A stretch of DNA of 58,445 nt, from positions 1 to 58,445 of the forward strand of contig NZ_QKYN01000098.1 of NCBI RefSeq assembly GCF_003258295.1, in the 5' to 3' direction. Every line of letters begins with the position of its first letter. Positions within the stretch are counted from its first letter, which is position 1. The notes under the pieces were generated by a model. That model was not told where the DNA came from. It did not search any database and worked only from the letters and a program-made list of their open reading frames with translations. Shown piece by piece: positions 15,633-17,154 of the stretch. Position numbers and translations under genes: made by a program. Source of the DNA: Streptacidiphilus pinicola. Its GTDB lineage: Bacteria > Actinomycetota > Actinomycetes > Streptomycetales > Streptomycetaceae.

Positions 15633-16520
15633 TCAACGGCGCAGGACGGTCTCCTCGTTGAGGCGGGACAGCTTCTCCGGGTTGCGCACGGCGAAGACGC
15701 CGGTGATCAGGCCCCGCTCGACGCGCAGCGCCAGCACCGTCTCCACCCGGCCCGCCAGGCGCAGCACCAGTGCCTGGTGGCCGTTGACCTGTGCGGCCAG
15801 CGGCGACACCGTGGCCGCGATGCGGGCCAGCACGGCAGCCACCTGCTCCGCCCCGACGACCGGTGCGAGCGCCGCCCGTGCGACCCCGCCGCCGTCGGTC
15901 AGCAGCACCACGTCCGGGGCCAGCAGGTCCACCAGCGGCTGCAGCTCGCCGGTCTCCACCGCCCGCCGGAAGGCGTCCCAGGTGTGCCGCGTCTGCGCCG
16001 CCGAGACCTCCGCGCGCGGTCGGCGGGCCGCCACGTGCCCGCGGGCCCGGTGCGCGATCTGCCGGACCGCGGCCGGGCTCTTCTCGACGGCCTCCGCGAT
16101 CTCCTCGTACCCGAGGTCGAAGACCTCGCGCAGCACGAACACGGCCCGCTCGGTCGGCGTCAGGGTCTCCAGCACCAGCAGCATCGCCATCGAGACGCTG
16201 TCCGCGAGCTCCACGTCCTCGGCCACGTCCGGCGCGGTCAGCAGCGGTTCGGGCAGCCACGGGCCGACGTAGGACTCGCGGCGGCGGGCCAGCGTCCGCA
16301 GCCGGGTGAGCGCCTGGCGGGTGCTGATGCGCACCAGGTACGCGCGCTGGTCCCGCACTTCCGCGTGGTCGACGCCGGACCACTTCAGCCAGGTCTCCTG
16401 CAGCACGTCCTCGGCGTCGGCGGCCGAGCCGAGCAGCTCGTAGGCGACGGTGAACAGCAGGCTGCGGTGGGCGAGGAACACCTCGGTGGCCGTGTCCGTG
16501 TCCGTGCTCTGTGCGCTCAT
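15633..16520 (-). CDS. ECF41-group sigma factor with fused SnoaL-like domain
   Basis: A 295-aa sigma factor from the ATG at 16520. Sigma region 2 (HRSLLFTVAYELLGSAADAE, DVLQETWLKW) and region 4 (LTPTERAVFVLREVFDLGYE, AVRQIAHRARGHV) occupy the first 170 residues. The remaining SnoaL-like domain carries the two ECF41 hallmarks, DGGG (LLTDGGGVARAAL) and a terminal NPEKL. In this group the fused domain replaces a separate anti-sigma factor and modulates activity. GGGAG precedes the ATG. Its own promoter matches the group consensus, as does that of the divergent carboxymuconolactone-decarboxylase-like gene, the usual partner type. Confidence 0.92.
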   Translation of the reverse strand: MSAQSTDTDTATEVFLAHRSLLFTVAYELLGSAADAEDVLQETWLKWSGVDHAEVRDQRAYLVRISTRQALTRLRTLARRRESYVGPWLPEPLLTAPDVAEDVELADSVSMAMLLVLETLTPTERAVFVLREVFDLGYEEIAEAVEKSPAAVRQIAHRARGHVAARRPRAEVSAAQTRHTWDAFRRAVETGELQPLVDLLAPDVVLLTDGGGVARAALAPVVGAEQVAAVLARIAATVSPLAAQVNGHQALVLRLAGRVETVLALRVERGLITGVFAVRNPEKLSRLNEETVLRR

Positions 16521-16557
16521 CCCCGACTCCCGTCTCTTCGTTCGCGTCCACCCACCA

Positions 16558-16584
16558 GACGCGCGACGCGGTCGGAATGTGACA
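16558..16584 (-). promoter_or_regulatory. ECF41 promoter of the sigma gene
   Basis: Read on the minus strand: TGTCACA (16584-16578), 16 bases, CGTC (16561-16558). This is exactly the published ECF41 consensus TGTCACA-N16-CGTC. It points at the sigma gene start at 16520 and indicates autoregulation. Confidence 0.88.
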
Positions 16585-16595
16585 TCCGGCGCGGC

Positions 16596-16622
16596 TGTCA
16601 CAGGATCGCGGCCGCCGGCGTC
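16596..16622 (+). promoter_or_regulatory. ECF41 promoter of the CMD-like gene
   Basis: TGTCACA (16596-16602), 16 bases, CGTC (16619-16622), again the exact ECF41 consensus, 50 bases before the ATG at 16672. The two promoters face away from each other with 11 bases between their -35 elements. Confidence 0.9.
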
Positions 16623-16671
16623 CTGTGTCCGTCCGACGTGAGAACGCAGACCGAACCGAGGGGATGCACCC

Positions 16672-17154
16672 ATGGAACCGCGATTCAACCTGTTCGACAG
16701 CCCGACCGCCGCGAAGGTCGCCAAGCGCTTCTACCACGCCTCACTCGCCGTCCAGCAGTCGCCGCTGCCGAGGGAGCTGCAGGAACTGGTGTCGCTGCGC
16801 GCCAGCCAGATCAACGGCTGCGGCTTCTGTGCCGACGTGCACACCAAGGAGGCGGCGGCCGCGGGCGGGAGCCGGGCCAAGCTCGACCTGGTCGCCGCCT
16901 GGCGGCACAGCAGTGTGTTCACCGAGGCCGAGCGCGCCGCGCTGGCGCTCGCCGAGGAGGGCACCCGGATCGCCGACGCCGCGCCGGGCGTCTCGGACGG
17001 GACCTGGGCGGCGGCGCGCAAGCACTACGACGACGACCAGCTCGGCGCGCTCGTCTGCCTGATCGCGATGATCAACGCGTCCAACCGGATGGGCGTGATC
17101 GTCAACAGCCTCGGCGGCTCCTACCAGCCCGGCGCGTTCACCGCACTGGACTGA
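16672..17154 (+). CDS. Carboxymuconolactone decarboxylase / AhpD-like protein
   Basis: A 160-aa AhpD-fold protein. The redox/catalytic motif is C50-x2-C53-x3-H57 (INGCGFCADVHTKEA), with helices typical of the family on both sides (ELVSLRASQ; LIAMINASNRMGVIVNSL). GAGGGG precedes the ATG. It is preceded by a perfect ECF41 promoter and faces the ECF41 gene, which makes it the probable main target. COE-type genes (carboxymuconolactone decarboxylase, oxidoreductase, epimerase) are the standard ECF41 partners; a peroxide- or electrophile-reducing role is likely but unproven. Its stop abuts that of the convergent SGNH gene. Confidence 0.9.
   Translation: MEPRFNLFDSPTAAKVAKRFYHASLAVQQSPLPRELQELVSLRASQINGCGFCADVHTKEAAAAGGSRAKLDLVAAWRHSSVFTEAERAALALAEEGTRIADAAPGVSDGTWAAARKHYDDDQLGALVCLIAMINASNRMGVIVNSLGGSYQPGAFTALD

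What the first reader, a model, noticed from the sequence alone, without database searches (positions are those of the whole stretch)
16558..16622. Two back-to-back ECF41 promoters, both exact consensus
TGTCACA-N16-CGTC occurs once on each strand, with the -35 elements only 11 bases apart. One drives the ECF41 gene, the other the AhpD-like partner. Exact agreement on both strands makes this a clean, self-contained switch whose inducer is not known.
Basis: partly seen in the sequence, partly recalled or inferred. Interest (0 to 1): 0.7.

Follow-up and report, generated by a model that had tools for sequence, protein, structure and literature searches.

The report
Sigma-factor promoter pair missing its operator
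Two back-to-back promoters for a stress sigma factor and its partner enzyme are really there and of a known kind, but most close relatives keep a third control site midway between them, probably for the cAMP-sensing regulator Crp, and this locus has lost it.

Summary
TGTCACA-N16-CGTC lies on the minus strand (16584-16558) and the plus strand (16596-16622), with the -35 elements 11 bp apart. The left gene is an ECF41 sigma factor, the right gene an AhpD-like protein. Such divergent pairs with the motif on both sides were described in 2012, so the pair itself is not new.

In 38 of 48 divergent relatives the -35s are 33-35 bp apart, and 43 of 48 carry a conserved palindrome, GTGGCGYACGTCAC, mostly centred 17.5 bp from both -35s. 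It fits the published Streptomyces Crp consensus GTG(N)6GNCAC. A DNA-only search of 391 genomes of the order gave 55 of 59 pairs at 33-35 bp, 49 of the 55 with the site. The window branches inside that clade but has 11 bp and no site: a derived, compact, operator-less variant. Its sigma-side promoter, though an exact consensus match, scores lowest on the clade's own matrix.

Best reading: an ECF41-autoregulated pair that lost a second, probably Crp-cAMP, input. 'Self-contained' is only partly supported: the genome encodes further ECF41 proteins and similar promoters. No binding or transcription was tested.

The parts
15633..16520 (-). ECF41-group sigma factor gene (295 aa), with YVGPWLPEP linker and NPEKL C-terminal motifs
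   Evidence: TIGR02957 350 bits (cut-off 323), SigJ NF007214 297 bits (cut-off 271); solved SigJ 5xe7 E 2e-38; motifs in the translation
16672..17154 (+). AhpD-like carboxymuconolactone decarboxylase family protein (160 aa), CxxC = CGFC
   Evidence: PF02627 E 1e-19, TIGR00778 ahpD_dom over cut-off, sequence
16578..16584 (-). -35 element TGTCACA of the sigma-gene promoter
16558..16561 (-). -10 element CGTC of the sigma-gene promoter; the clade's CGG extension before it is missing
16596..16602 (+). -35 element TGTCACA of the AhpD-gene promoter
16619..16622 (+). -10 element CGTC of the AhpD-gene promoter; clade-type CCGGCRTC extension present
16585..16595 (.). 11-bp spacer between the two -35 elements, where 38 of 48 divergent relatives have 33-35 bp; no GTG-N8-CAC site here
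   Evidence: one search lists no such site in 16520-16672

Best explanation
The stretch is a divergent pair of ECF41-type promoters. RNA polymerase carrying the ECF41 sigma factor encoded on the left reads both: leftward to make more of itself, rightward to make the AhpD-like protein. Activity is set by the sigma factor's own C-terminal domain answering an unknown signal. In the ancestral form of this clade a dimeric regulator, most likely Crp-cAMP, bound a palindrome midway, about 17.5 bp upstream of each -35, and served both promoters at once, so that ECF41 output also followed a global metabolic signal. At this locus about 23 bp including that site are gone, leaving a compact pair with no binding site for that second input. 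With the -35 centres 18 bp apart, two polymerases probably cannot sit there together freely. Shown here: the sequences, orientations, protein families, the conserved palindrome and fixed geometry in relatives, its absence here, and a Crp orthologue in the genome. Inferred: who binds, activation rather than repression, mutual exclusion, and use of both promoters.
For: Exact facing motifs; ECF41 hallmarks. In PMC3426412 the motif was mapped by 5'RACE and shown ECF41-dependent in two species, and 55 loci were divergent, 36 with the motif before the sigma gene and 41 before the partner. Operator: 43 of 48 divergent relatives; among the 38 spacers of 33-35 bp, 37 have it, against 0.4% of shuffles of those spacers. 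In 26 spacers of 34 bp the mean pairwise identity is 0.78 in the operator, 0.48 in its flanks and 0.49 in a 5'UTR control. DNA-only search: 55 of 59 places at 33-35 bp in 391 genomes, no hit of the reversed-pattern control in the listing; 49 of 55 with the strict site, at least 39 of 55 exactly 10+14+10. Derived loss: the window sits in a 99/89 clade with three 34-bp loci. Crp consensus GTG(N)6GNCAC; Crp orthologue in the genome.
Against: No transcription start, binding or expression data. The Crp assignment rests on a consensus match and the presence of a Crp gene; other GTG-N8-CAC binders exist, and purified Crp of S. tsukubaensis gave no shift on a cya fragment with a predicted site. Five of 48 relatives lack the palindrome by the strict test (one of them keeps a 34-bp spacer, L118), so the clade tolerates loss. 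Compact operator-less pairs occur in other lineages (12 of 28 matching genomes besides the window, gaps 6-24 bp). The sigma-side promoter scores lowest of 49, so autoregulation could be weak. Tree rooting is weak: the outgroup branch is very long and the bootstrap had not settled. The genome is a draft of 281 contigs; reads could not be checked.
Confidence: 0.65

Rival explanations
1. The central palindrome of the relatives belongs to another regulator with GTG-N8-CAC geometry, such as the redox repressor Rex or an unnamed CRP/FNR protein; the window lost that input instead.
For: The genome has five cNMP-binding domain matches. Rex sites share the GTG-N8-CAC frame (recalled, from no call).
Against: The commonest inner bases are C at position 5 (20 of 26) and G at position 10 (24 of 26) of the palindrome; Rex prefers A and T there (recalled). 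The G-N-CAC arm matches the Streptomyces Crp consensus read.
Confidence: 0.25
2. The palindrome is made of extra -35-like GTCAC half-sites bound by sigma region 4 or a second polymerase, not an operator for a separate protein.
For: Its right arm CGTCACA equals a -35 variant seen in 16 of 48 AhpD-side promoters.
Against: In 26 spacers of 34 bp the fourth base of the left arm is G in 20, giving GCCAC, not GTCAC, in -35 orientation. At the distance where a -10 for the right arm would fall, the AhpD-side columns read GGGA, not CRTC (columns 8-11).
Confidence: 0.1
3. The fixed 34-bp spacing and palindrome are only shared ancestry, and the window's 11 bp a neutral deletion with no regulatory meaning.
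For: All 48 loci are homologous; short or long gaps arose in several places of the tree.
Against: Flanks inside the same spacer have drifted to the identity of a 5'UTR control (0.48 and 0.49) while the palindrome stays at 0.78. A like site also stands 16.5-18.5 bp upstream of 25 of 38 AhpD promoters with no close sigma gene found beside them, by the looser G[TA]G-N8-CAC, and beside other partner genes.
Confidence: 0.12
4. The sigma-side motif is not used: the sigma gene is read from another start, and only the AhpD promoter is a target.
For: Lowest matrix score of 49 on the sigma side. [quoted passage not shown]
Against: An exact -35/-10 match at 16 bp, correctly oriented, with a short leader to the ATG; a sigma-side site scores over 14 bits in 49 of 50 divergent relatives.
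Confidence: 0.2

Closest known systems
Divergent ECF41-COE loci of Wecke et al. 2012 (PMC3426412)
   Same: ECF41 sigma gene facing a CxxC carboxymuconolactone decarboxylase gene, TGTCACA-N16-CGTC before both; no anti-sigma gene recognised beside it
   Different: In the parts of that paper I read, no operator between the promoters is reported; here the -35s are 11 bp apart and the operator typical of the close relatives is missing
SigJ of Mycobacterium tuberculosis (5xe7)
   Same: ECF core plus C-terminal extension; full-length SigJ model matched over its cut-off
   Different: The best solved-structure alignment covers residues 14-240; no Pfam SnoaL hit at 0.001
Crp-served divergent promoters (one site midway activating both ways; general knowledge, recalled)
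   Same: The relatives' palindrome lies midway with equal arms to both -35s
   Different: The core promoters are of ECF41 type, not housekeeping; Crp binding is untested; the window has no such site

Membership tests
ECF41 sigma factor | Sigma regions 2 and 4 with a C-terminal extension | tested here: met
   PF04542, PF08281; TIGR02957 and SigJ NF007214 over cut-off, matching residues 13-287 and 8-288 of 295
ECF41 sigma factor | SnoaL/NTF2-like fold of the extension | tested here: inconclusive
   No Pfam SnoaL hit at 0.001; SigJ 5xe7 aligned only to residue 240; no structure predicted
ECF41 sigma factor | YVGPWLPEP in the sigma2-sigma4 linker and NPDKL in the extension (named in PMC7730460) | tested here: met
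   YVGPWLPEP exact; NPEKL, one conservative change (sequence)
ECF41 sigma factor | Partner of the COE type with CxxC, no anti-sigma gene adjacent | tested here: met
   CMD-family neighbour with CGFC; outer neighbours match acetyltransferase and GDSL lipase families
ECF41 promoter | TGTCACA, 16 +/- 1 bp, CGTC | tested here: met
   Both strands exact
ECF41 promoter | Transcription depends on the cognate sigma factor | not testable with these tools
   Needs RNA from wild type and deletion strain
Crp-linked ECF41 promoter pair (the relatives' form) | GTG-N6-GNCAC centred 16.5-18.5 bp from both -35s | tested here: not met
   Window spacer 11 bp, no GTG-N8-CAC in 16520-16672
Crp-linked ECF41 promoter pair (the relatives' form) | Crp gene in the genome | tested here: met
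   C263 protein, 224 aa, matches M. tuberculosis CRP/FNR-family structures over its whole length, 278 bits
Crp-linked ECF41 promoter pair (the relatives' form) | Crp binds the palindrome | not testable with these tools
   Needs EMSA or ChIP in a relative

The most novel reading that the evidence does not exclude
In actinobacteria this ECF41 clade is a two-input device: Crp-cAMP on a palindrome at the midpoint drives both divergent ECF41 promoters, so a global nutrient signal gates a sigma factor whose inducer has not been found. The window is a natural escape from that gate, answering to the sigma factor alone.
Probability: 0.4. Interest if true: 0.65.

Novelty: new variant of a known kind. 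Interest (0 to 1): 0.48.

Why it matters
No inducing condition for ECF41-dependent expression was known in the 2012 study. A conserved second site at fixed position in most close relatives points to a testable input (Crp and cAMP, hence carbon status or development), which a screen for direct inducers would miss. The window and the 12-bp loci elsewhere in the tree are natural experiments without that site, suited to separating the sigma factor's own signal from the second input.

Tried and rejected
Chance as the source of the pair: rejected. The gap of 17 bp in G795 (L164): an AhpD gene with no sigma homologue in the fetched 5 kb, whose operator half was read as a -35. The gap of 20 bp in G745 (L166): a GTCAC-rich stretch with no sigma or AhpD homologue in the fetched 4.3 kb. 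Other exact N16 sites in the genome: L005 at the end of a ClpP-like frame; L008 upstream of a response regulator beside a SigE-family sigma gene, where GTCAC-N6-GTCAC looks like an AfsQ1 box (name and box recalled); L009 between a GtrA-like and a PurK-like frame; none treated as ECF41 targets (protein names are my reading of the frames, not a search). The N15 places were not examined. Helical phasing of the gap itself without operator: not supported, since operator-less gaps of 6, 9, 11, 12, 20, 23 and 24 bp occur. Compensation for the lost site by better core elements: I considered it because only the window among 49 loci is exact on both strands, and dropped it because 4 other places are exact on both sides too, three of them at 33-35 bp, and L082/L084 are not exact on the AhpD side. 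Structure prediction was not used. Literature: no description of this operator was found in searches (the last swamped by unrelated 'camp' words), nor by the words 'palindrom', 'upstream element' or 'catabolite' in PMC3426412. The library lacks most subscription papers, and I saw neither the Crp ChIP paper (Gao 2012) nor the 2019 ECF41/ECF42 paper (Wu), so this is weak evidence of absence.

Full report
Observation. One search confirms two exact TGTCACA-N16-CGTC sites facing away from each other at 16558-16584 (-) and 16596-16622 (+), and no other in the window (shuffle mean 0.14; 1 of 100 shuffles reached two). Eleven bases, 16585-16595, separate the -35 heptamers. The ATG of the sigma gene is at 16520 and that of the AhpD gene at 16672 (reading frames), so starts 6-10 bases after each -10 would leave leaders of roughly 30 and 40 nt (inference).

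Genes. The left protein passes the curated cut-offs of TIGR02957 and SigJ NF007214, matches solved SigJ 5xe7, and carries YVGPWLPEP and NPEKL (sequence); YVGPWLPEP and NPDKL are the ECF41 linker and C-terminal motifs named in PMC7730460 (passages). The right protein is a CMD/AhpD-like protein with CGFC.

What was known. PMC3426412 (abstract, sections 20 and 30, part 1 of section 22, and passages) defined the motif by 5'RACE and reporter assays in B. licheniformis and R. sphaeroides. It counted 55 divergent loci of 373 tabulated, 36 with the motif before the sigma gene and 41 before the partner, and says that both genes often carry it. The window's arrangement is therefore a known kind. Its authors knew no inducing condition.

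Relatives by protein. In 50 of the 80 an ECF41 gene of more than 60% identity stands divergently within the fetched flank. By a matrix built from these loci plus the window, 48 of the 50 have both promoters; the other two are L062 (no site found upstream of its AhpD gene) and L109 (17-bp promoter spacer, mis-scored). Gaps between the -35s in the 48: 33-35 bp in 38, 12 in 2, 23-25 in 3, 44 in 1, 103-140 in 4. The AhpD side has CATC as -10 in 39 of 48. Both sides share a conserved CGG before the -10, which the window's sigma-side promoter lacks.

The central site. In 43 of 48 the spacer holds GTG-N6-GNCAC on one strand or the other; this is 37 of the 38 spacers of 33-35 bp, against 0.4% of 2000 shuffles of each of those spacers. 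In the 26 spacers of exactly 34 bp the T and G of GTG and all of CAC are invariant (25 of 26 for the first G). Mean pairwise identity is 0.78 in the palindrome, 0.48 in the flanks and 0.49 in a 5'UTR control. Its centre is 17.5 or 18.5 bp from the AhpD -35 in 42 of the 44 loci with a relaxed site (search extended 7 bp into the sigma -35) and 16.5-18.5 bp from the sigma -35 in 38 of 44. The rest: 7.5 and 11.5 on the AhpD side; 6.5, 7.5, 33.5, 86.5, 110.5 and 123.5 on the sigma side. Of 50 AhpD genes with no close divergent sigma gene found, 38 had a recognisable promoter; by the looser G[TA]G-N8-CAC the site is at 16.5-18.5 bp in 25, at 21.5, 26.5 or 27.5 in 3, absent in 10 (L128 and L143 look like the same promoter). 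Of 8 divergent loci among the nearest relatives searched separately (L134-L141), 7 have the strict site.

DNA-only test. A pattern of both promoters with any gap of 5-35 bp, blind to genes, hit 57 of 391 genomes of the order (the window's included), 59 places: 44 at 34 bp, 10 at 35, 1 at 33, and one each at 11 (window), 17, 20 and 24; no reversed-pattern control hit is listed. The strict site is in 49 of the 55 at 33-35 bp, the relaxed one in 52. Gaps of 36-66 bp occur in 13 of 391 genomes, with control hits in one genome; 10 of the 14 places are at 43-45 bp and carry GTG-N8-CTC-like palindromes nearer one -35. Across the class, 28 of 394 genomes match, some shared with the order sample: 15 at 33-35 bp and 13 at 6-24 bp, the window among the latter. 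Of the 12 other compact places 9 were fetched: 8 hold a sigma homologue only 39-47% identical to the window's (in L188 it lies beyond an epimerase-like frame) and L190 none; the three 34-bp places fetched have 69-70%, and one of these, L193, has no strict site by my reading of its spacer. In the phylum sample 8 of 396 genomes match exact -35s, and one distant genome, G049, also has an 11-bp gap, with a sigma factor of about 44% identity. Compact pairs are thus found in other ECF41 lineages, and the 34-bp form with operator is typical of the window's own clade, also where the partner is a transporter-like (L163, 35 bp) or epimerase-like protein (L195, 34 bp); an oxidoreductase-like partner (L181) has a 46-bp gap with the palindrome (partner names read from the sequence, not from a family search).

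History. In a tree of 60 rows the window groups (99/89) with three Streptomyces loci that have 34-bp spacers, and the 12-bp pair L082/L084 lies elsewhere (the outgroup branch is very long and the bootstrap had not fully settled). In 14 genomes of the window's genus only one other double promoter was found, a 35-bp form with the palindrome. In that genus the best other AhpD matches are at most 62% identical, against 70% in another genus of the family and in another family of the order, so the locus may have come by transfer and the loss may have happened elsewhere. The short gap is best read as a loss of about 23 bp in this lineage.

Who binds. PMC10033298 (passages) gives GTG(N)6GNCAC as the strong Streptomyces coelicolor Crp consensus and GTG(N)8CAC for GlxR. 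The window's genome has a Crp orthologue. Binding is not shown. The same paper reports that purified Crp from S. tsukubaensis gave no shift on a cya promoter fragment with a predicted site, a caution about consensus matches. Midway placement suggests one dimer acting on both promoters (inference).

Self-containedness. The genome has four proteins over the TIGR02957 cut-off, the window's included, and one just below. Two partner-sigma operons, on C31 and C263, have ECF41-type promoters preceded by the palindrome; an AhpD gene on C184 and a divergent locus on C40 have ECF41-type promoters without it. Which sigma factor reads which promoter is open.

Verdict. Observation confirmed; interpretation partly supported; a known arrangement in an unusual operator-less form whose relatives reveal a conserved second control site. 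On checking, I withdrew the idea that the window's double-exact consensus is a compensation; the odds of the main readings did not depend on it.

Noticed in passing
L179, L180 and the other 43-45 bp places: A second divergent layout: an AhpD gene (55-56% identical, with a 45-46% identical ECF41 gene behind it) facing a DoxX-like frame (my reading), gap 43-45 bp, with a palindrome near one -35; in G786 the stretch around the palindrome looks duplicated in tandem (gap 66 bp). Two of these loci were fetched.
   Followed up: partly
L082 and L084, spacer between ECF41 and AhpD genes: Records named Kitasatospora arboriphila and Williamsia muralis share identical promoters and nearly identical sigma factors; a mislabelled record, contamination or recent transfer.
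   Followed up: no
L184, L185 and three more genomes of one genus: Pairs with -35 elements only 6 bp apart in 5 genomes of one genus; in the two fetched, a distant ECF41 gene faces a large membrane-transporter-like frame.
   Followed up: partly
L008:1501-1527: An exact TGTCACA-N16-CGTC match upstream of a response-regulator gene next to a SigE-family sigma gene; its GTCAC-N6-GTCAC repeat looks like an AfsQ1 box (recalled), so it may be a false ECF41 site.
   Followed up: no
16558-16622 and the relatives: Both promoter types share an extended -10, CGGC before RTC, longer than the published CGTC consensus; the window has it only on the AhpD side.
   Followed up: partly
L193 (G1107): Keeps a 34-bp spacer although the GTG-N6-GNCAC site is absent by my reading.
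   Followed up: no
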